A DNA stretch of 64,000 bases. Origin: Oligoflexales bacterium. GTDB taxonomy: Bacteria > Bdellovibrionota_B > Oligoflexia > Oligoflexales > JALZUQ01. Positions 25,241 to 58,147 of the stretch are shown piece by piece (the first letter of the stretch is position 1; every line of letters begins with the position of its first letter). Made by a program: the position numbers and the translations under genes. Where the stretch lies: positions 62,001 to 126,000 of the forward strand of contig JALZUQ010000008.1 in assembly GCA_023301465.1 (NCBI GenBank), in the 5' to 3' direction. Below the pieces are notes generated by a model. It ran no database searches. It had not been told where the DNA came from and saw nothing but the letters and a program-made list of their open reading frames with translations.

Positions 25241-25540
25241 TTGTTAGCCCTTTGCATAATCTACGCAGTATTGATCATTAGCTGTAAACCATTAAACACC
25301 AGTGAAATCAAAGACACGTATTTAGACGCAGGGGCTGTTACGTATTTTTGGCTTATCTAAAATAAATAAAAAATATAAATCAACTGATGAAGGGTCAACC
25401 CCACTAAAAACATAGATGCTTTTCATCTTAAATGTAGCCCTGATCATTCTTACCGCAACAAAACACTTAGCATAAGTAAAGACACTTTAGGGCCTGAATA
25501 AGCGGCCTTTGCTGTAACTGATTATCAAGAGCAAACTATA
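25241..25540 (+). pseudogene. Relic of a lipoprotein gene
   Basis: The 301-bp gap after the acyl-CoA synthetase holds broken coding sequence. From a TTG at 25241 a 39-residue frame starts with a hydrophobic segment and a plausible lipobox (LIISC), then stops at 25358-25360. In other frames further down, protein-like stretches appear (NIDAFHLKCSPDHSYRNKT, then after a stop AAFAVTDYQEQTIF). The series of short open stretches in different frames suggests a lipoprotein gene inactivated by indels. No family recognised. Confidence 0.35.
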
Positions 25541-26423
25541 TTCTAGGACTAATCTCAAATATTCTAAAATGATGATCTTTAGTATTTTTTAAGTCCCATA
25601 AGAGTGGCTTACTTAAGCTTTTAACACCATAGAGTTTTGGCACATGAACCTGAATGTGTTCATCAGCCATGATGAGCAGCCTTCCAGATGATGTTGTTTT
25701 CACTGGTAAGTCTCGCATAAGCCTTTCAAATAAAACTCCTTTATAATCATACAGGTCATTAGGTCCATTTTTTAAATCAGTCATGATCTTATTGATCTTT
25801 TCTTCAGGCAGTCCTTGTTTCTTAAAAACCTCAGGAGTGATCACTCTAGGAGCATTAAAGATGATGAGATCATACTGCCCGGAGACTGAGTCTAGTAAAT
25901 CAGAATGAATATAATTCACTTGATCTTCAACCCCGTGAATTTTTGAGTTGATCTTAGCAACTCTAAGAGAGTTGATAGAAATATCTGTCGCAGTCACTTG
26001 GGCATTTGTCATTTTAGTGAGTGCAGTAGCATCCAGACCAACCCCTGAACCCAAAATGAGAATTCTTCGGTTTTTATCCAGCGTGTAGGGGTGAGAAAAT
26101 ACAGCCTCCATTAAGGCAACTCCATACCTACTCAGATCGCTATTTTGAGATGGACTAAACACACCCCTAGACCTAACCCCTGAAATACTTACTTTAGAAG
26201 TTACGGCAAATCGAAAAGTCGTCGGAAAATTAATCCCTGCTTGTACCGCTAGTTCTCTTGGGTTGTAGTTCTGGTCGTGACTGATAAAATTGTTATCTCG
26301 ATTAAACACACCCATGCTTTTTAAGCACTCATTCCCATGGGTGGGCGTTATCTCAGATAATAAAAAAATAATTAAGATTAGAAATAAAGTTGAATGAACT
26401 TTTAATAACAACAAGCTAATCAC
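25536..26423 (-). CDS. SAM-dependent methyltransferase with an N-terminal signal peptide
   Basis: 295 residues from GTG 26423, overlapping the end of nqrM by 8 bp. Residues 1-30 (MISLLLLKVHSTLFLILIIF, LLSEITPTHG) look like a signal peptide or membrane anchor, unusual for this fold. A class I Rossmann methyltransferase follows: motif I ILILGSGVGLDATAL near residue 120, acidic motif II ATDIS, and FNAPR where PrmC-type enzymes have NPPY. The next starting Met would be residue 37 and would leave the catalytic domain whole, so a cytosolic form cannot be excluded. A TTG three codons in has better ribosome-site spacing. Substrate unknown. Confidence 0.72.
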   Translation of the reverse strand: MISLLLLKVHSTLFLILIIFLLSEITPTHGNECLKSMGVFNRDNNFISHDQNYNPRELAVQAGINFPTTFRFAVTSKVSISGVRSRGVFSPSQNSDLSRYGVALMEAVFSHPYTLDKNRRILILGSGVGLDATALTKMTNAQVTATDISINSLRVAKINSKIHGVEDQVNYIHSDLLDSVSGQYDLIIFNAPRVITPEVFKKQGLPEEKINKIMTDLKNGPNDLYDYKGVLFERLMRDLPVKTTSSGRLLIMADEHIQVHVPKLYGVKSLSKPLLWDLKNTKDHHFRIFEISPRI

Positions 26424-33765: not shown

Positions 33766-35547
33766 ATGACAAAAAACTTTTTAACCACCTTGAATACTTT
33801 ATGCCTGCTGATTAGTTTAATTGTCTCACAATCACCTTTGCACGCTGACAGCCTTCAATGCATGTACAGCTTTCAAGTTGGAACCTATACTGATTTACCA
33901 ACCACCTTCACTGAAGAAGAAATTGCTAACATTGAAATAGAAACCTCTTATAAACAGAGTGTTAAAGACTCATATGAACAAAGTAATGAAGTACTCCGTG
34001 AGGATTCTACTGAACCAGAATTATTAGAAGTACTCCGTGAGGATTCTACTGAACCAGAATTATTAGAAGTACTCCGCGAGGATGCTACTGAACCAGAATC
34101 ATTAGATGATATTGGGCTATACCTTCAAAAAATTAGCCCTACCCCTCTGCTCAATAAGGCAGAAGAAGCAATATTTGGAAATGACATAGCTGAACTAGAA
34201 AAAGAAATGAGATCTACCTTACTTGAAAATGACTATATTTTTAAAGAATTAGTAAAAGTTTTAGGACATGTATTAAACAAGAAAGTTAGGATTGAAGGCC
34301 CTATCTCCACTACAGCCGCTAAGTCTCAAAAAAATAAAGAATTACGTAAGCTTATTTCAAGTAGCATCGAAAGCCTTAACGCCAAAGTTAAGCAGCATCA
34401 TGAAATGTTCCTTACTTCATTAGACGCAAAACAAACAAAAGCAAAACAGACATTTACACTGAAGCAACTATCAGAAAGCAGAACAACACTACCCAAAACC
34501 TTAGAGCCTTTTTTTCTAAGAGTTAACACTTTAAAACTAATCTATAAAAAGATGAGTAAGATCAATGATGAAGTACAGCAAATCGCAGCAAGACTAGAAA
34601 GCCCAGAAAAAGAGAGCGTTAACAATATTAGAACTTTAAAAGTTCGCATGACTTATCTTTTACAACAAGCAAACGAAACCCCAACAACACTAAAAGCAAA
34701 AACAGCCAAAGCAAAAGATGTTTATGATCGTTATTTTAATAAAAGAAAAGAGTTCGCAAACCACAATTTAAAACTCGTTGTTTTTATTGCAAAGCGTTAT
34801 CAAACGATAACAAAGACCCCATTTATGGATCTTATTCAGGCTGGAAACGTTGGACTATTACGAGCCACATTAGACTTCAAACCTCAGAAAGGCTTTAAAT
34901 TCTCAACATATGCATATAATTGGATTAAACTTTTTATTACTAGAGAAATGACTACAAACCACGAAAATGGCTCTCACATACCTATAGATATTCACTATTT
35001 AATGAACGATCTTAATCAAATTTATGATCAGGAACTTCTTAAAACTGAGACAAAGCTATCTCTAAAAGAACTTTTATATAGATATAAAATAAATAAAATC
35101 ACAAAGAAACATCATAAAACAACCTCAACAGCTGAAATAGAACAAGCTACCCAGTTTGCAAAAGAAAAATATGAAAGTATGAGAGAATCCCTGCAACTTA
35201 TGAGTTCTCCTATCGAACTAGATTCAGAACAATACCTTGATCGAGGAAAAACTCTATCTATAAGAATCCCAGCAAAAGGTAAAAGTGAAAGTCTTGTAAA
35301 ATCAGAAAATAATGAACTTGCAAGTATTCTAGGCGACGCTCTAGACGACTTAAGTGAAGTAGAAGCTCAAGTATTAAGACTAAGAAATGGATTTTACAAC
35401 GACACTGTTTACACTCAAGAAGTAACTGGTAAATTTATAGGAAAAAGCTGGCTAAGAGTGCAACAAATCGAAAAAAGAGCACTTGAAAAACTACGAGACC
35501 GTTCTATCAGAAATGGCTTACATTCGTATGATAATACAGCGGAATAG
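33766..35547 (+). CDS. RpoD-like sigma-70 protein with a Sec-type signal peptide (copy 1)
   Basis: 593 residues. Residues 1-27 are a classical signal peptide (basic MTKN, hydrophobic core LCLLISLIV, cleavage after SPLHA). Then come three 13-residue repeats (75-113) and a full primary-sigma layout. Region 1.2 is DDIGLYLQKISPTPLLN at 114-130, followed by a roughly 180-residue charged helical insert like the non-conserved region of RpoD. Region 2 (about 333-412) has NLKLVVFIAKRYQ, DLIQAGNVGLLRAT and KFSTYAYNWIKLFITRE. A weak region 3 (about 430-510) and region 4 (about 518-580) with LSEVEAQVLRLRNGF and VQQIEKRALEKLR follow. Relative to E. coli sigma70, W433 is Asn, Q437 Leu, R584 Trp and E585 Leu. 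Met33 apart, no internal start would spare region 1.2. No clear Shine-Dalgarno. Export and function are unproven. Confidence 0.8.
   Translation: MTKNFLTTLNTLCLLISLIVSQSPLHADSLQCMYSFQVGTYTDLPTTFTEEEIANIEIETSYKQSVKDSYEQSNEVLREDSTEPELLEVLREDSTEPELLEVLREDATEPESLDDIGLYLQKISPTPLLNKAEEAIFGNDIAELEKEMRSTLLENDYIFKELVKVLGHVLNKKVRIEGPISTTAAKSQKNKELRKLISSSIESLNAKVKQHHEMFLTSLDAKQTKAKQTFTLKQLSESRTTLPKTLEPFFLRVNTLKLIYKKMSKINDEVQQIAARLESPEKESVNNIRTLKVRMTYLLQQANETPTTLKAKTAKAKDVYDRYFNKRKEFANHNLKLVVFIAKRYQTITKTPFMDLIQAGNVGLLRATLDFKPQKGFKFSTYAYNWIKLFITREMTTNHENGSHIPIDIHYLMNDLNQIYDQELLKTETKLSLKELLYRYKINKITKKHHKTTSTAEIEQATQFAKEKYESMRESLQLMSSPIELDSEQYLDRGKTLSIRIPAKGKSESLVKSENNELASILGDALDDLSEVEAQVLRLRNGFYNDTVYTQEVTGKFIGKSWLRVQQIEKRALEKLRDRSIRNGLHSYDNTAE
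33988..34104 (+). repeat. Three tandem 39-bp coding repeats
   Basis: Units at 33988-34026, 34027-34065 and 34066-34104. The first two are identical; the third has three differences seen by eye. Each encodes EVLREDSTEPELL or a near copy, an acidic 13-residue unit placed between the signal peptide and sigma region 1.2. Confidence 0.95.
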
Positions 35548-35613
35548 ACTACAAAAACTAGTCATATTCTGTATGAGTTCTTTTTCCCAAGCCAAAGAAA
35601 GGGTCTTCAGGTA

Positions 35614-37224
35614 ATGTTAAAGCTATTTATTCTCTCTATTAGTTTGCTAGCAGCTTACTCAACCGCCTTTGGAGTAGAAGTTGATTGCCAGCAAGAGTTC
35701 CAAGGCAGCCTCATTGAATTAAACCAAAGCAGCATGAAAGAACAGACTGACAAAACAATATTATCAAATATTGATGATATTGGAAGATACTTCATGCAGA
35801 TTGGCCCAACACGCATACTCAGCAGAGAAGAAGAGATTATTCTTGGAAATGAGATCTTAGCATTAGAAAAAGAGCTAAGAACCGCTTTGTTTAAAAATGA
35901 TTATGTTTTTGAAAAAGCTATAGAAATGATAGACCGCGTATACAAAAAAGACGTTTTGATGACCACGATACTAATGACTTCCAGTAACCGACCAAAGAAA
36001 ACCAAGCATTTGACCCGTCTTGTTTCCGAAAACATTGAATCCCTTAAAGAGCAATACCAAGAACACCAAAAATTATTTTCCGACTCTCATATAACTTCTG
36101 CATCAAAACGACAGCTCCCCGGCAGCAAAGCTGCTTGGAGAAAATTATCAAAGAAAAGATCACAAACTCCAAAAACTATGAGCCCGTTCATGCTTCGAAT
36201 AGAAGTACTAGAATCCATCTATCAAAGCTTCATGAAAACCAACCAAGAACTTCAAACACTTGCTAAAGAAGTAGATAACCCACCTACAGAAAGACATAAA
36301 GAGTACTATCAAAAAAAATTACGCCTGATCGTTCTCATGTATAAAGTGCATGAAAACAAATCAACACTAGAAAAAAAAATCGCAAAAATAAAAAAAATAC
36401 ATAAAGACTACTACGATAAGAGAGAAAAACTAGCAAAACACAACTTGAAATTAGTAGTATCTATCGCAAAAACCTATCAAGGCACAACCTCTATCAGCTT
36501 ATTTGATCTCATTCAATCTGGTAATATAGGCCTAGCACGAGCCACACAAGACTTTGATCCTAGCCGTGGAAATAAGTTTTCTACTTACGCCACCACATGG
36601 ATTAGAAGCTTTATTCTTGATACAATTTCACGTAGTAAGCATCAAGTGTATATTCCGGTGCTTACTCAACGCCTCGTAGCTAAACTTAAAAAAATAAGAG
36701 AAGAAAAACTCCATTCAACCATGAAAAACCTACCACTTGAAAGTTTTTTATATGAATATAAGATTAGAGAATTAACAGAAACAGACATTATTAAAACTCC
36801 TGAAGAGATGAGAAGAGAAGCATTAAAATTTCAAAAAAACAATTCTAACCTTGTAAAAAAAGCCTTAAAAGCAATGAATCACTTGCTTGAGACAGATGCA
36901 GGATACAAACTAAAATCCACTGGGAATACAGTAAAAAGAGATTTTGGGAGCGACACCAAAAGTGAGAGTCTTTTAGATTTTGAACATAGAGAGCTAAAAA
37001 GCACACTCTATCGGGCACTAAGCACCCTAAGTGAGCGAGAAATAGAAATTCTCAAACTCCGAAGAGGCCTCGATGGCTACAGAGAACACACTCTACGAGA
37101 AGTTGGAGAAACATTAAACATAAGCCCCTCTAGAACAAAACAAATTGAAAAAAAAGCTTTTAAAAAACTATTAAAAAACTCCAAAAACAACGGTTTACAT
37201 GTTTATGATCTCACGGCTGACTAA
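35614..37224 (+). CDS. RpoD-like sigma-70 protein with a Sec-type signal peptide (copy 2)
   Basis: 536 residues, 66 bp after copy 1. Signal peptide MLKLFILSISLLAAYSTAFG, cleavage near 20. Region 1.2 is DDIGRYFMQIGPTRILSREE at 54-73, then a 190-residue charged insert. Region 2 (about 275-350) has NLKLVVSIAKTYQ, DLIQSGNIGLARAT and KFSTYATTWIRSFI; region 4 (about 465-522) has LSEREIEILKLRRGL and TLREVGETLNIS, RTKQIEKKAFKKL. Relative to E. coli sigma70, W433 is Thr, Q437 Ser, T440 Leu, R584 Pro, E585 Ser and R588 Lys. It lacks the 13-residue repeats of copy 1. A 13-codon frame from ATG 35572 ends in TAATG at this start and could couple translation. Sigma homology is clear; export and role are inference. 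Confidence 0.8.
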   Translation: MLKLFILSISLLAAYSTAFGVEVDCQQEFQGSLIELNQSSMKEQTDKTILSNIDDIGRYFMQIGPTRILSREEEIILGNEILALEKELRTALFKNDYVFEKAIEMIDRVYKKDVLMTTILMTSSNRPKKTKHLTRLVSENIESLKEQYQEHQKLFSDSHITSASKRQLPGSKAAWRKLSKKRSQTPKTMSPFMLRIEVLESIYQSFMKTNQELQTLAKEVDNPPTERHKEYYQKKLRLIVLMYKVHENKSTLEKKIAKIKKIHKDYYDKREKLAKHNLKLVVSIAKTYQGTTSISLFDLIQSGNIGLARATQDFDPSRGNKFSTYATTWIRSFILDTISRSKHQVYIPVLTQRLVAKLKKIREEKLHSTMKNLPLESFLYEYKIRELTETDIIKTPEEMRREALKFQKNNSNLVKKALKAMNHLLETDAGYKLKSTGNTVKRDFGSDTKSESLLDFEHRELKSTLYRALSTLSEREIEILKLRRGLDGYREHTLREVGETLNISPSRTKQIEKKAFKKLLKNSKNNGLHVYDLTAD

Positions 37225-46144: not shown

Positions 46145-47563
46145 TTAGCGTATTCGAAATAAGTTTAGTTTTTTATCTGTCAATTTAAACATAAATGCCG
46201 GCCAGTTTGACTTTCTGTTTTCACTAAAAACTCGACCTGCTTTGAAAAAGTTAGATTTTGAATGAGACATCTTATGAATCAACCCTACCTTTATCGTTCT
46301 TGATGAAGACTGAAGATTTGTAGCTTGCGAAATAATTTCAGCAGCTCTTGTCCCTATGAGCTTAAAATCAATATTTGAAACATCTGACGCACCTACGAAA
46401 GAGTGATCTTTTTGATCTAATTGATAGTCTGAAATATTTTTTGGAAGCATATTATAATAACCTACATAATCCACAAAATATGAGTTTTCAAGAATTTTAG
46501 GTAGTGGATTCACAAGTTCTTTAGAACGCCATTTTTGACTTCCAACAATTTGTACCGGCCCCGACCTAAAATATTTAAGTGTTCGTGTAAAATGCTTAAG
46601 ATTTTTAAAATTACCAGGAAAAACGACTACATCAAATTCTTTTATCGCTTCTAATTGAAACGCTGCATCAAAGGTTTTTGCTTTTGTGTTATTACTCTCT
46701 AGCAATGCAAGTTTTTTGTATTCAATCGGCTGGTCTTCAGGGTTAAGCTTTAATAGTGAACGAACTGTTTTATCCATTGACTGATATTCATCAGGATTAA
46801 ATTCATGTTCAGAAACAACAGATAGTTTTGGGAAATATTTTAAGTTGTTTTTTAGTGACTGCATAAATATGCTTGAAAGTCTTGATGAAACTAAAGACAA
46901 CCTATACTTTTTTTGCAGCTCAAGTTCTATGAGCAGTGTCTTTGTCATTTGATCTAAGTTTGGAAATACCTGAAAGGAAAACTTTGATTGAAACCCTCCA
47001 TTGTCATTTGACAGTACAAACGTAGGTAGTCTTAGCTGATGAAGAATTTTTTTTGCTTGATGTATCGAATACTTACCGGGACCAAGTACGATATAGTTTA
47101 CGTCTAATACCAAGACTGCTAGTGCAAGCTGCCTTAAAAAAGAACTAAAGTCATAGCCTGTGTCCAAGACATTAAATTTTACTTTTGGATTATTGTTTTG
47201 AAAGTATGAGCTCATACTTGAGTAGACGTTATGTGCTGGAGTATTTGTATCACCGCCTAACTGCGACATGAGTCCAACATGGTTATTTCTCATAGCAAGT
47301 ATTTCTTCTAAGAAAAGCCTTAAATCTTTTCTGCTTTTAGGATCATTACATAAGTTTTTATTTGATTTTAAGAGCTTTTTATATCGAGGATGAATTTTTT
47401 TTCTTTTTTCAATCAGTAAATGCTTATAAAGTTTAAGGTATGGTTTCTTAACATAATTAAATACCATTTTACATTTATCTGTAGTCCATTTGTTTTTTGA
47501 AACTGCAAAAGATGGGGTTGAAATCATCACAAGTAAAAAAAATATATTAATAAAAGATACCAC
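46145..47563 (-). CDS. Periplasmic type-1-binding-fold protein, candidate PBP activator (LpoA-like)
   Basis: 472 residues from GTG 47563, chosen for GGAGA 7 bases upstream and the signal peptide it yields (SFINIFFLLVMISTPSFA). The frame is open to 47629 inside the PBP gene, which I disregard. The mature domain looks like a periplasmic-binding protein type 1 (two alpha/beta lobes): VGLMSQLGGD, NYIVLGPGKYSIHQAKKI, LPTFVLSNDNGG, YRLSLVSS, EFDVVVFPGNF, GPVQIVGSQKW. LpoA, which activates PBP1A in enterobacteria, has this fold. Coupling to a class A PBP (17-bp overlap) makes PBP activation the most attractive role, but no lipobox is present and the assignment is inference. Confidence 0.6.
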   Translation of the reverse strand: MVSFINIFFLLVMISTPSFAVSKNKWTTDKCKMVFNYVKKPYLKLYKHLLIEKRKKIHPRYKKLLKSNKNLCNDPKSRKDLRLFLEEILAMRNNHVGLMSQLGGDTNTPAHNVYSSMSSYFQNNNPKVKFNVLDTGYDFSSFLRQLALAVLVLDVNYIVLGPGKYSIHQAKKILHQLRLPTFVLSNDNGGFQSKFSFQVFPNLDQMTKTLLIELELQKKYRLSLVSSRLSSIFMQSLKNNLKYFPKLSVVSEHEFNPDEYQSMDKTVRSLLKLNPEDQPIEYKKLALLESNNTKAKTFDAAFQLEAIKEFDVVVFPGNFKNLKHFTRTLKYFRSGPVQIVGSQKWRSKELVNPLPKILENSYFVDYVGYYNMLPKNISDYQLDQKDHSFVGASDVSNIDFKLIGTRAAEIISQATNLQSSSRTIKVGLIHKMSHSKSNFFKAGRVFSENRKSNWPAFMFKLTDKKLNLFRIR

Positions 47564-49553
47564 GATAATCTCCTTTTTGACTAATAGACCTAAAAGATGA
47601 ATCTTTTTTTTCTTGTGTTGGTTCAGCACCTTTTAAAAAAGCAACCTCAACGCCTTCATCACTGATATACCCATGTTTTGGATTGATTTTGATTTTATTG
47701 AAATGTTCAGGCAATACATATTTTTCTGGTTTTATTACGTTTTTCATAGAATGAATGAAGTCCATCCAGATTGGCAATGCTAATTTATGACCACCAAATT
47801 TTAATTGAAGCGGGAGATAATTATCTGACCCTACCCATGTCATCGCTAAAAGGTTAGGACTAAAACCACAAAACCAATTATCGATACCATTATTTGAAGT
47901 TCCTGTTTTCCCAACAAAATACTTGCTATGCCCACTTGCTTTTTTTGCTGTTCCATAAGTCATGACTTTTCTCATTCCATCTATGATCATATGAGCGTAA
48001 TCTTCTTCGATCACTTTTGATGTTTTAACTTTATGTTGATAAATAATATCACCTTTCATATTGGTGATTTTTCTAATTGCATAAATGTTTTTTCGCACCC
48101 CTAAATTAGCAATACTCGCATACATTCTTGCCATGTCTAACATGGTTACTTCAGACCCCCCTAACGCCGAACCTAATTCCTTTTTCATTGGAGACTGAAT
48201 CCCAAGCGATTTAAACCGTTCAAGAACTTTTTCAAGCCCAAGTTTTTTGGTGATTTCAACTGTCGGAGTATTCAAAGAAAGATAAAAAGACCTCATTAAG
48301 GTTGACTCAGTCATAAAAGATTCAGTACTATTTTTAGGTCTATAGGTTTCGTACCTTAATGGTGAGATAAACATAGAGTCATACCAGTTCATCCCAGACT
48401 CTAATGCATTCAAATAAACTGCTGGCTTAATCAATGATCCCGGAGAACGTTTTGCTTGCCACACTCTATTAAATTGACTTTTTCTATAACTCTTCCCTCC
48501 TTGCATGGCAAGAATTTGACCTGTTTTTGGGTTGGTTACTAAAAATGATATTTCTAAGTCTAACTTGTCTTTTTTTGGTAAAAATCTTTGATTCAATTTC
48601 TGCAGATCATGAATTCTCTTTTTATGAGAATCAATTGCCTTTTGTACTTGTAGCTGAGAAGAGCGATCTAATGTTGTGTATACTTTAATGCCTTGGCTTG
48701 GATCATATTTTTCTCCTAAAATTGTCTTTAATTTCGCACCAATATAATCAACAAAATAAGGTGCAAAAACTCGGTCACGATGATTAAATTTTTTAAAATT
48801 TAATTTTTGATGATAAATTTTTTTCATGCTTTGCTTTTGAATCACACCATTTCTAGCCATCGCTTGTAAAACCTTCCACTGCCTCGTCTTTGCTGCTTTA
48901 AGATTTTTTTTAGGATTATAACGTGATGGAGATTGCAAAAGACCTATCATTAATGAAATTTCATTTAAACTCACTTCAGTCAGATTCTTATTAAAGTACC
49001 TTCTTGAAGCAGCGGCAATTCCATATGAACCATCTCCAAAAAACATATTATTCAGATAAAGTTCTAAAATCTTTTTCTTTGAAATCTTTTTTTCTAATTT
49101 ATAAGATAGGTATATTTCACGTAATTTTCTAACAAGCACTTTTTTTCTAGTTAAACAAAACTTTCGCACCAATTGCTGCGTAATGGTACTAGCACCATGA
49201 GTGGCTTTTCCATGCTTCAAAAAACCCACACCTACCCTAAAAATAGCTTTTAAATCAAAACCTTGATGCTCGTAGAAATTTTTATCCTCCACAGCTAGCA
49301 ATGTTTCGATGATTTTTTTTGGGATTTTATCTACGGGTGTATGAATTTGATAACGATCAAAAAGCTCACCAATTTCTTTATTGGAATTATCAAAAATTTT
49401 TGAATTACTTAGGTTTTTAAATAAAGTTATCTTATTTAGGCTACTTTCAACATCTGCAAAAATTTGATGGTCGTAACAAAATTTTGCAGAATACCCGACA
49501 ATAATAATCATCGAAACCAATACAATAGAGAGCACAATCTTTGTTTTTTTCAT
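47547..49553 (-). CDS. Class A penicillin-binding protein (transglycosylase/transpeptidase)
   Basis: 668 residues, a bifunctional peptidoglycan synthase. N-terminal membrane anchor (about 6-25); GT51 domain with catalytic Glu in AVEDKNFYEHQGFD, then HGASTITQQLVRKF and ELYLNNMFFGDGSYGI; transpeptidase with RSPGSLIKP (SxxK), SLNTPT (SxN) and FVGKTGTSNN (KTG). It is shorter than PBP1A because it lacks the large ODD/OB insert. Directly followed, with 17-bp overlap, by a PBP1-fold periplasmic protein that may regulate it. Confidence 0.94.
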   Translation of the reverse strand: MKKTKIVLSIVLVSMIIIVGYSAKFCYDHQIFADVESSLNKITLFKNLSNSKIFDNSNKEIGELFDRYQIHTPVDKIPKKIIETLLAVEDKNFYEHQGFDLKAIFRVGVGFLKHGKATHGASTITQQLVRKFCLTRKKVLVRKLREIYLSYKLEKKISKKKILELYLNNMFFGDGSYGIAAASRRYFNKNLTEVSLNEISLMIGLLQSPSRYNPKKNLKAAKTRQWKVLQAMARNGVIQKQSMKKIYHQKLNFKKFNHRDRVFAPYFVDYIGAKLKTILGEKYDPSQGIKVYTTLDRSSQLQVQKAIDSHKKRIHDLQKLNQRFLPKKDKLDLEISFLVTNPKTGQILAMQGGKSYRKSQFNRVWQAKRSPGSLIKPAVYLNALESGMNWYDSMFISPLRYETYRPKNSTESFMTESTLMRSFYLSLNTPTVEITKKLGLEKVLERFKSLGIQSPMKKELGSALGGSEVTMLDMARMYASIANLGVRKNIYAIRKITNMKGDIIYQHKVKTSKVIEEDYAHMIIDGMRKVMTYGTAKKASGHSKYFVGKTGTSNNGIDNWFCGFSPNLLAMTWVGSDNYLPLQLKFGGHKLALPIWMDFIHSMKNVIKPEKYVLPEHFNKIKINPKHGYISDEGVEVAFLKGAEPTQEKKDSSFRSISQKGDYRGIFY

Positions 49554-57002: not shown

Positions 57003-57950
57003 TTACTTAAACAAAGTAAAAAAGTAAGCTAAAGTTATATAACTTAGATCACAATAATTAAAGAATTTCTTACTGAAGGACGGATCTTTCATTTTTTTAT
57101 AACCTCTAAGGTTAATAGCTAGATCATAGTAGATATCAAGTGGGAGATCAGAGTTTATTAATGCATGGTAATACAAAAGCAAATTGAAAAGCTCATTCAT
57201 TTTACTATCTATTATTTTTTCATCTTTATACCTATTTGAAATCTTAGATCTAGTAGCTTCAAGCCTTTCATTTGAAAAAGCAAAATCTCTTTGTAAGAAT
57301 TCTTTATCCAAATATTCATGTTTTAAAAACCATTCAACAAAAAACTGAATGAGCTCCTGACGTTTTTCCAAAGGGATTGTCTGCAAGAATTCATATTCAA
57401 CTTTAATTGCCTCTCGTTCTAAATCCAAAATGACATTTTTAGATAGAGACTTTATCCTTTGTAAAGTTCTATATGGACCAATTTCTTTATACTTAGAAAC
57501 AGTATCAAAGAGATGGCCTAATTCATGAATAAAAAAAATCAAACTAACACGATCACTAAAAAAACGATTAGCTGTTTGATCTATGAAAATTTTTGAGCGT
57601 TCAAGATAAACATGGAAGTCATACTCTCCTGAAAGAAACATATCTTCATACTCAAAAACAATCATATTCAATCTTATTTTATCATTAGAACCACCAAATC
57701 CTTGATGAACTCGTAAGTAATTTTTTAAAACTTCTCTTAAAATTTTTTTTTCATCTTTTGAAAAACTTTTATCTTTGTGAACGATAAAATCTGAGAAATA
57801 TTGCACCATGCCGTTCTCAACATGGTCTTCGAGACTATCTTGAAACCCCTCATCGCAAGGGGCAGCATCCACTAAATGATTCATAAAGCACATAAAAAAA
57901 AGTGCGTAAACAAAGGTGAAATTAAAGTGATTTATATTCATTCTTTTCAT
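57003..57950 (-). CDS. Secreted HELGH zinc metallopeptidase-like protein
   Basis: About 315 residues from ATG 57950 (a TTG at 57965 and ATG 57941 are alternatives). Signal peptide ends near VDAA. The centre has LIFFIHELGHLFDTV, an HExxH zinc motif with following Gly-His, and about 30 residues later LEREAIKVEYEF, whose Glu could be the third ligand. The rest is helical and charged. Located 41 bp after hemF on the same strand order, preceded by a tiny membrane protein. A periplasmic or secreted peptidase is likely; substrate unknown. Confidence 0.6.
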   Translation of the reverse strand: MKRMNINHFNFTFVYALFFMCFMNHLVDAAPCDEGFQDSLEDHVENGMVQYFSDFIVHKDKSFSKDEKKILREVLKNYLRVHQGFGGSNDKIRLNMIVFEYEDMFLSGEYDFHVYLERSKIFIDQTANRFFSDRVSLIFFIHELGHLFDTVSKYKEIGPYRTLQRIKSLSKNVILDLEREAIKVEYEFLQTIPLEKRQELIQFFVEWFLKHEYLDKEFLQRDFAFSNERLEATRSKISNRYKDEKIIDSKMNELFNLLLYYHALINSDLPLDIYYDLAINLRGYKKMKDPSFSKKFFNYCDLSYITLAYFFTLFK

Positions 57951-57958
57951 GAAGTCTA

Positions 57959-58147
57959 TTAGCACAAAAAATACTCAGCAACAAAACAAAATGCCGCCAT
58001 AGCCCTATCATCGTTTTTAGAAACAGTATCCCACAGGCCTAACACAAATAATTTTTGCCAGTCATGCAGATAAGTAAAGGGCAACAAACCAAAGATCATA
58101 TGAATCATTCCAGTTGCCATCAATAAAACACCGTGTATTCCAACCAT
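57959..58147 (-). CDS. Short membrane protein, truncated DUF6463-like
   Basis: 62 residues with two hydrophobic helices. The beginning MVGIHGVLLMATGMIHMIFG and the later NDDRAMAAFCFV match the first half of DUF6463-type proteins, which normally have about 120 residues and four helices; the second half is absent here, and no continuation is seen in other frames. It may be a natural short form or a truncated gene. It ends close to the start of the metallopeptidase-like gene. Confidence 0.45.
   Translation of the reverse strand: MVGIHGVLLMATGMIHMIFGLLPFTYLHDWQKLFVLGLWDTVSKNDDRAMAAFCFVAEYFLC

What the first reader, a model, noticed from the sequence alone, without database searches (positions are those of the whole stretch)
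33766..37224. Two tandem RpoD-like sigma factors that carry Sec signal peptides
Seen: each protein opens with a basic n-region, a hydrophobic core and a signal-peptidase-like site, and then contains sigma region 1.2, a primary-sigma-type non-conserved insert, region 2 (DLIQxGNxGLxRAT, KFSTYA) and region 4 (QIEK). Known: sigma-70 proteins work in the cytoplasm on RNA polymerase and are not exported. Inference: these are exported or membrane-tethered sigma proteins. If the organism is predatory or host-associated, they could act on another cell's RNA polymerase; other options are a membrane-held latent sigma released by proteolysis, or proteins reused for a non-transcription role. I know of no described system like this.
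Basis: partly seen in the sequence, partly recalled or inferred. Interest (0 to 1): 0.93.

Follow-up and report, generated by a model that had tools for sequence, protein, structure and literature searches.

The report
Sigma factors carrying an export signal
A Bdellovibrionota-like bacterium has three transcription sigma factors that begin with a secretion signal and share a short C-x-x-x-F tag with about 30 other proteins, many of cytoplasm type, which suggests it sends its own transcription factors out of the cell, perhaps into a host or prey.

Summary
Window 33766-35547 (593 aa) and 35614-37224 (536 aa) encode diverged sigma-70 proteins (regions 2 and 4 above Pfam cut-offs, region 1.2 weak, no region-3 match), each behind a Sec-type signal peptide. 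Ordinary sigma factors (RpoD, RpoH, FliA-like, ECF-like) lie elsewhere in the genome. A third signal-peptide sigma-like protein lies on contig C53. About 33 proteins in ~80% of the genome carry signal peptide plus C-x3-[F/M]. C-x3-F occurs in 30 soluble signal-peptide proteins against 10.7 +/- 3.0 in shuffles, only at this spacing. Recognisable cargo is cytoplasm-type (SLOG, Ham1, PrmC-like methyltransferase, hydrolases); untagged signal-peptide proteins are ordinary envelope proteins. A SLOG homologue in another family of the order keeps signal peptide and C-x3-F at 35% identity. I read this as a lineage-specific export module and the sigma proteins as exported cargo, most likely meant for a foreign bacterial-type RNA polymerase (prey, or a host plastid). 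Export is well supported by sequence; the target is inference. No orthologue of the sigma proteins was found in 57 relatives. Secretion route and host are unknown.

The parts
33766..35547 (+). P1: 593-aa sigma-70-like protein with N-terminal signal peptide
   Evidence: ORF; Pfam r2 and r4; no orthologue in 57 relatives above RpoD background
33766..33846 (+). P1 signal peptide, putative cleavage after LHA (aa 1-27)
   Evidence: hydropathy 2.60 over 11 residues, basic n-region; cleavage site is inference
33859..33876 (+). P1 C-x-x-x-F-Q tag (CMYSFQ); Cys32 is the only cysteine of the mature protein
33988..34106 (+). 39-bp tandem repeat, 3.1 copies, in the linker between tag and region 1.2 of P1
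34111..34197 (+). P1 region 1.2-like
   Evidence: Pfam PF00140 17.1 bits, below the cut-off of 22
34759..34947 (+). P1 sigma region 2
   Evidence: Pfam PF04542 46 bits
35338..35496 (+). P1 sigma region 4
   Evidence: Pfam PF04545 35.4 bits
35614..37224 (+). P2: 536-aa sigma-70-like protein with N-terminal signal peptide, 66 bp downstream of P1
   Evidence: ORF; Pfam; AF2 model with best Foldseek match E. coli sigma70
35614..35673 (+). P2 signal peptide, putative cleavage STAFG|VE (aa 1-20)
   Evidence: hydropathy 2.64 over 11 residues; cleavage site is inference
35686..35703 (+). P2 C-x-x-x-F-Q tag (CQQEFQ); only cysteine of the mature protein
35782..35865 (+). P2 region 1.2-like
   Evidence: Pfam PF00140 16.0 bits, below cut-off
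36430..36639 (+). P2 sigma region 2
   Evidence: Pfam PF04542 58.4 bits
37015..37170 (+). P2 sigma region 4
   Evidence: Pfam PF04545 55.7 bits
43123..44361 (+). Member of the same N-terminal class: signal peptide + CINTF, no known domain
25536..26423 (-). Member of the same N-terminal class: signal peptide + CLKSM, PrmC/HemK-like methyltransferase domain
57003..57965 (-). Member of the same N-terminal class: signal peptide + CDEGFQ; HELGH sequence (metallopeptidase-like by eye, no Pfam match)
46145..47629 (-). Probable member: signal peptide (start near 47563) + CKMVF, no known domain

Best explanation
P1 and P2, with a third paralogue on contig C53, are sigma-70-type proteins exported by the Sec pathway. 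They belong to a lineage-specific class of about 33 proteins whose precursors begin with a signal peptide followed within a few to about 20 residues by C-x-x-x-F, which I read as a second sorting or anchoring signal used after Sec translocation (mechanism unknown). Because sigma folds, nucleotide-handling enzymes and a release-factor-type methyltransferase have nothing to act on in a periplasm, the likely destination is another cell that contains bacterial-type machinery. There the sigma proteins would bind that cell's core RNA polymerase through the conserved region 2.1-2.2 and redirect or block transcription; their altered region 2.4 and 4.2 residues would give different promoter choice. Shown by sequence: signal peptides, shared spaced motif, cargo types, conserved sigma core residues. 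Inferred: cleavage, crossing of the outer membrane, delivery to a foreign cell, binding of foreign RNA polymerase.
For: Three paralogues keep signal peptide + CxxxFQ at about 28-38% identity. C-x3-F occurs in 30 soluble signal-peptide proteins; 1000 shuffles give 10.7 +/- 3.0, maximum 20; other spacings give 6-17; non-signal-peptide proteins show no peak. In the motif set the tag Cys is often the only Cys (19 of 38; 0.31 further Cys per 100 aa against 0.93 in other signal-peptide proteins). Recognisable cargo is cytoplasm-type, while 58 untagged signal-peptide proteins match Omp85, OmpA, LptD, SBP_bac_5, SLT and cytochrome c. A G009 SLOG homologue (35% id over the domain) starts MIIIKPKYLLVVAALSLLSPVLAPERAHAAGSKKGICASIF, so signal peptide and C-x3-F are kept where flanks are not alignable. 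Region 2.2 DLIQ-GN-GL and helix-turn-helix ...R..QIE are kept in P1/P2. AF2 of P2 matches E. coli sigma70 in holoenzyme, E 6.9e-13, probability 1.00. The genome has separate RpoD, RpoH, FliA-like and ECF-like genes without signal peptides.
Against: No experiment; no SignalP. No dedicated secretion machine was identified. No orthologue of the sigma proteins in 57 relatives, so conservation of the signal peptide on this cargo rests on three paralogues in one genome assembly. The host or prey is unknown. Only one outside homologue supports the tag. About half of the tagged proteins have no recognisable domain, so the cargo argument rests on a minority. The aromatic at the E. coli W433 position is lost in all three and region 3 was not detected, so promoter opening could be impaired. 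The third paralogue models poorly outside region 4.
Confidence: 0.45

Rival explanations
1. Exported, but repurposed: the sigma fold serves as a structural, DNA- or RNA-binding scaffold in the periplasm or on the cell surface, with no RNA polymerase partner.
For: No RNA polymerase in the periplasm; region 3 not detected; DNA-contact residues of 2.4 and 4.2 altered in P1/P2; the third copy has a much changed region 2 (17.7 bits, below cut-off).
Against: The invariant positions across P1, P2, P3 and RpoD include the core-binding D298, N304 and the helix-turn-helix Q510, I511, E512 (P2 numbering), which suggests selection on RNA polymerase and DNA contacts; the other tagged cargo includes apparently catalytic cytoplasmic enzymes.
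Confidence: 0.2
2. Membrane-tethered latent sigma: the N-terminal helix is an uncleaved signal anchor and regulated proteolysis releases the sigma domain into the bacterium's own cytoplasm.
For: A single N-terminal hydrophobic segment; membrane-anchored precursors of regulators are known (general knowledge).
Against: A short basic n-region in front would place the sigma domain outside by the positive-inside rule; the same signal peptide plus C-x3-F module heads peptidases, SLOG, Ham1 and methyltransferases, which does not fit a sigma-specific release device.
Confidence: 0.1
3. Mis-annotated start: the real proteins start downstream and are ordinary cytoplasmic alternative sigma factors; the upstream hydrophobic stretch is not translated.
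For: Start sites are computed only; the P1 ribosome-binding site is weak (AAAGAAAGACAGACCCCCTCCACAATG).
Against: All three paralogues keep hydrophobic segment and CxxxFQ in frame; in P1 the next ATG lies inside the motif; the same architecture recurs in about 30 other genes at z about 6.4 over shuffles and in G009.
Confidence: 0.05
4. A more specific form of the best explanation: sigma effectors aimed at the plastid RNA polymerase of an algal host. The organism enters algae and supplies a competitor for the host's nucleus-encoded plastid sigma factors.
For: A paper reports an Oligoflexales-like bacterium that attaches to and replicates inside Nannochloropsis (PMC12865303); another links Oligoflexales abundance to algal symbionts (PMC10701089); the recognisable cargo has bacterial-type targets.
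Against: Placement of this genome in Oligoflexales is my inference from the pattern of relatives, not a named match; no host data; no plastid transit signal was sought; the prey could as well be bacteria.
Confidence: 0.12

Closest known systems
Primary (group 1/2) sigma-70 factors, RpoD/SigA
   Same: Region 1.2-like, long helical insert like the non-conserved region, regions 2 and 4; best PDB sequence matches are SigA chains, best fold match is E. coli sigma70
   Different: Signal peptide and C-x3-F tag; scores far below RpoD equivalog cut-offs (TIGR02393: 135.7 and 104 against 354); region 3 not detected; region 2.4/4.2 contacts changed
MzaA (NF041931), sigma-like protein of the MZA anti-phage system
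   Same: Best NCBIfam profile for all three (120.8, 150 and 100 bits)
   Different: Cut-off is 800 bits; own RpoD scores 405.8 on the same model, so this is only shared sigma homology
Sec-dependent bacterial effectors (two-step secretion)
   Same: Signal peptide on lineage-specific proteins with intracellular-type domains
   Different: No machine identified; a shared C-x3-F tag; I found no paper on an exported sigma factor
Bacterial lipoproteins
   Same: Signal peptide followed by a cysteine
   Different: The Cys lies several residues or more past the cleavage region without a lipobox (e.g. DSLQC, VEVDC, DAAPC), and F at +4 is specific

Membership tests
Sigma-70 superfamily | Region 2 (PF04542) above cut-off | tested here: met
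   P1 46, P2 58.4 bits against 24; third paralogue only 17.7
Sigma-70 superfamily | Region 4 (PF04545) above cut-off | tested here: met
   35.4, 55.7 and 46.9 bits against 24.1; TIGR02937 superfamily cut-off met by all three
RpoD equivalog (housekeeping sigma) | Score above TIGR02393 cut-off 354 | tested here: not met
   104, 135.7 and 78.3 bits; own RpoD scores 402
RpoD equivalog (housekeeping sigma) | Region 3 (PF04539) | tested here: not met
   No match at E up to 1 for P1/P2, at E up to 0.1 for the third
Functional RNA polymerase sigma factor | Conserved core-binding residues of region 2.2 | tested here: met
   DLIQ(S/A)GN(I/V)GL in P2/P1, diverged DLVSESNLAL in the third
Functional RNA polymerase sigma factor | Binds core RNA polymerase and starts transcription | not testable with these tools
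   needs biochemistry
Sec-exported protein | Basic n-region, hydrophobic core, small residues at cleavage site | tested here: met
   crude test with 1.8% internal-Met pass rate; no SignalP
Sec-exported protein | Protein found outside the cytoplasm | not testable with these tools
   needs fractionation or proteomics
Lipoprotein | Lipobox [LVI][AST][GA]C at the cleavage site | tested here: not met
   Cys at mature position about +5 without lipobox; lipobox proteins were excluded from the motif set
MzaA | NF041931 cut-off 800 | tested here: not met
   120.8, 150 and 100 bits
Signal peptide + C-x3-F class (proposed here) | C-x3-F after signal peptide beyond chance and spacing-specific | tested here: met
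   30 against 10.7 +/- 3.0
Signal peptide + C-x3-F class (proposed here) | Kept in a homologue of another lineage | tested here: met
   one case, G009 SLOG homologue, ICASIF; three other cargo queries (methyltransferase, M28 peptidase, L049 protein) found no relatives at their thresholds

The most novel reading that the evidence does not exclude
The bacterium has an undescribed export class, defined by a signal peptide plus C-x-x-x-F, that ships about 30 proteins, among them three sigma factors, into a prey or host cell, where the sigma factors reprogram that cell's (or its plastid's) RNA polymerase.
Probability: 0.35. Interest if true: 0.95.

Novelty: categorically new. Interest (0 to 1): 0.8.

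Why it matters
I know of no sigma factor that is exported, and the text searches found none. If confirmed, it would be an effector type that takes over a foreign bacterial RNA polymerase directly, and the C-x3-F tag would be a handle for finding the secretome of a barely studied predatory or host-associated lineage. Even if the target reading fails, a spacing-specific tag behind signal peptides on unrelated cytoplasmic domains needs an explanation and can be tested now.

Tried and rejected
Search for named relatives in genome contigs with P2 and with the P1+P2 alignment: no relatives, then only generic sigma matches; viral contigs likewise. Mis-called start: rejected as above. Lipoprotein: rejected, no lipobox. 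MzaA membership: rejected, far below cut-off and own RpoD scores higher. Housekeeping sigma: rejected, RpoD is a separate gene (C15). ATP/ADP translocase as a sign of intracellular life: only a weak partial match (23.6 bits over a cut-off of 21, model positions 161-367 of 491), not relied on. Shared upstream motif for coregulation of the tagged genes: none convincing. Promoter and terminator scans: no more than shuffles. My signal-peptide test is permissive (about 560 soluble proteins pass), so counts are relative to shuffles, not absolute. Organism name: not obtained; the placement near Oligoflexia is inferred from sizes and grouping of relatives.
Full report
WHAT IS THERE. Two intact ORFs lie in tandem on the + strand, 66 bp apart: P1 33766-35547 (593 aa) and P2 35614-37224 (536 aa). 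They sit between divergently read nqr genes and a convergent M3-type peptidase gene (ORF order; these neighbour names are my reading of the translations). P1 and P2 are 37-38% identical over most of their length. Pfam finds sigma regions 2 and 4 above cut-off in both, region 1.2 below cut-off, and no region 3.

THE SIGNAL PEPTIDES. P1 begins MTKNFLTTLNTLCLLISLIVSQSPLHA, P2 begins MLKLFILSISLLAAYSTAFG. The best 11-residue hydropathy is 2.60 and 2.64, and there is no further TM-like segment. Only 1.8% of internal Met positions in soluble proteins of this genome pass a comparable test. I had no SignalP, so cleavage positions are inference. In P1 the next in-frame ATG lies inside the motif discussed below, so a downstream start would cut the conserved tag.

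NOT THE HOUSEKEEPING SIGMA. The genome has an ordinary RpoD on contig C15 (650 aa, 402 bits on TIGR02393), an RpoH, a FliA-like and two ECF-like genes, with ordinary N-termini. A search with P1 turned up a third protein of the same build on contig C53 (L113:13012-14790, minus; P3): MSDHNKTFLCLFSLLIVGMALPCMGSESNDQDVENLCSSGFQ..., with region 4 at 46.9 bits and a diverged region 2. It is closer to P2 (48 bits) than to RpoD (32.9 bits).

A SHARED TAG. The three signal-peptide sigma proteins all have C-x-x-x-F-Q a short way into the mature protein (CMYSFQ, CQQEFQ, CSSGFQ). Among 560 signal-peptide-like soluble proteins without a lipobox, 30 have C-x3-F in the first 40 residues after the hydrophobic core; 1000 within-window shuffles gave 10.7 +/- 3.0 (maximum 20). 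Other spacings gave 6 to 17, and 778 proteins without signal peptide show no peak at this spacing. Allowing M for F and removing poor cases leaves 33 proteins. In the raw set of 38, the tag Cys is the only mature Cys in 19, and further Cys are rare (0.31 against 0.93 per 100 aa). By the shuffles, perhaps a third of the motif hits are chance, so not every member of the set is secure.

WHAT ELSE CARRIES THE TAG. Pfam and NCBIfam on the set: SLOG/LOG twice, M28 peptidase, S33-type hydrolase (tag with M), PrmC/HemK-like methyltransferase (tag with M), Ham1, CHAD-like (weak), PRTase-CE (weak), VWA (weak), and many without any match. As a control, 58 signal-peptide proteins without the tag match Omp85, OmpA, LptD, solute-binding proteins, transglycosylases, cytochromes and PPIases. 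So the signal-peptide test finds real envelope proteins, and the recognisable tagged proteins are of another kind.

CONSERVATION. The SLOG protein L100:5480-7477 has two homologues in tandem in G009, a genome of another family of the same order (35% and 33% identity over the domain). One of them starts MIIIKPKYLLVVAALSLLSPVLAPERAHAAGSKKGICASIFEFF: signal peptide and C-x3-F are kept while the flanks cannot be aligned. The start of the other is unclear. The sigma proteins, the methyltransferase, the M28 protein and the L049 protein have no counterpart in the sampled relatives at the thresholds used. Lineage-restricted cargo fits effectors but leaves this cargo's signal peptide supported by three paralogues only.

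ARE THEY STILL SIGMA FACTORS? Region 2.2 in P2/P1 keeps DLIQ(S/A)GN(I/V)GL, and region 4.2 keeps R..QIE. The positions corresponding to E. coli W433 and Q437 (-10 melting and recognition; residue roles from general knowledge) are changed in all three, and the R584/E585 equivalents in P1 and P2. AF2 of P2 with a thin alignment gives mean pLDDT 68, with regions 1.2-2 and 4 mostly 70-90; the best PDB fold match is E. coli sigma70 in holoenzyme, E 6.9e-13, though the global TM-score is only about 0.4 (rmsd 18), which fits flexible domain placement. The alignment given to AF2 contained RpoD sequences, so the fold match is not independent of the sequence homology. The best PDB sequence match is SigA, 1.1e-30. 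I conclude that core binding is probably kept and promoter choice changed. P3 is confident only in region 4.

MECHANISM. Shown by sequence: signal peptides; a spacing-specific tag; cytoplasm-type cargo among the recognisable members; sigma core residues. Inferred: Sec export and cleavage (likely), a second step that reads C-x3-F (plausible), entry into a foreign cell (plausible), action on that cell's bacterial-type RNA polymerase (plausible, about 0.4). Periplasmic proteins have no RNA polymerase, nucleotide pool or release factor to act on, which is why a foreign cytoplasm or plastid is the best single destination. The kinship groups of the relatives (one class in the phylum; some genomes near 7.4 Mb, compare Oligoflexus at 7.57 Mb, PMC5154148 abstract) suggest an Oligoflexia-like organism; this placement is inference. 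An Oligoflexales-like bacterium that replicates inside Nannochloropsis has been described (PMC12865303), so an algal plastid is one possible target, bacterial prey another.

LITERATURE. Full-text searches for an exported, secreted or effector sigma factor found none, and CxxxF searches found nothing related. The library lacks most subscription papers.

LIMITS. One genome assembly; a crude signal-peptide test; no name for the organism; no secretion machine identified; one outside case for the tag; no experiment.

Noticed in passing
L100:5480-7477 and L100:10409-12154 (G000 C64): Two signal-peptide + C-x3-F proteins with SLOG/lysine-decarboxylase-like nucleotide domains, with tandem homologues in G009 (L194, L195).
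   Followed up: partly
L172:13735-14394 minus (G000 C30): Signal peptide + CFVNF ahead of a Ham1-type (inosine triphosphate pyrophosphatase-like) domain, 33.3 bits.
   Followed up: no
window 25536-26423 minus: Signal peptide + CLKSM ahead of a PrmC/HemK-like methyltransferase domain; no close relative in 55 other genomes.
   Followed up: partly
L100:1575-2642 minus and L171:9857-10747 plus: Two tagged proteins that look like CHAD domains (first: PF05235 18.8 bits, below cut-off; second by eye only).
   Followed up: no
L123:9964-10893 (G000 C2): Tagged protein (CHEVF) with weak PRTase-CE similarity (24.5 bits, below cut-off).
   Followed up: no
L049:235-2424 (G000 C9): 729-aa tagged protein with repeated helix-turn-helix-looking segments and no Pfam match above cut-off; possibly another exported DNA-binding protein.
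   Followed up: partly
window 33988-34106: 39-bp tandem repeat (3.1 copies, 96% match) coding an acidic linker in P1, absent from P2.
   Followed up: no
L003, next to rpoD on C15: An ORF that reads like an integrase/transposase (391 aa) lies beside the housekeeping rpoD gene.
   Followed up: no
tagged genes, genome-wide: Tagged genes have slightly lower G+C (34.6%) than all genes (37.4%).
   Followed up: no
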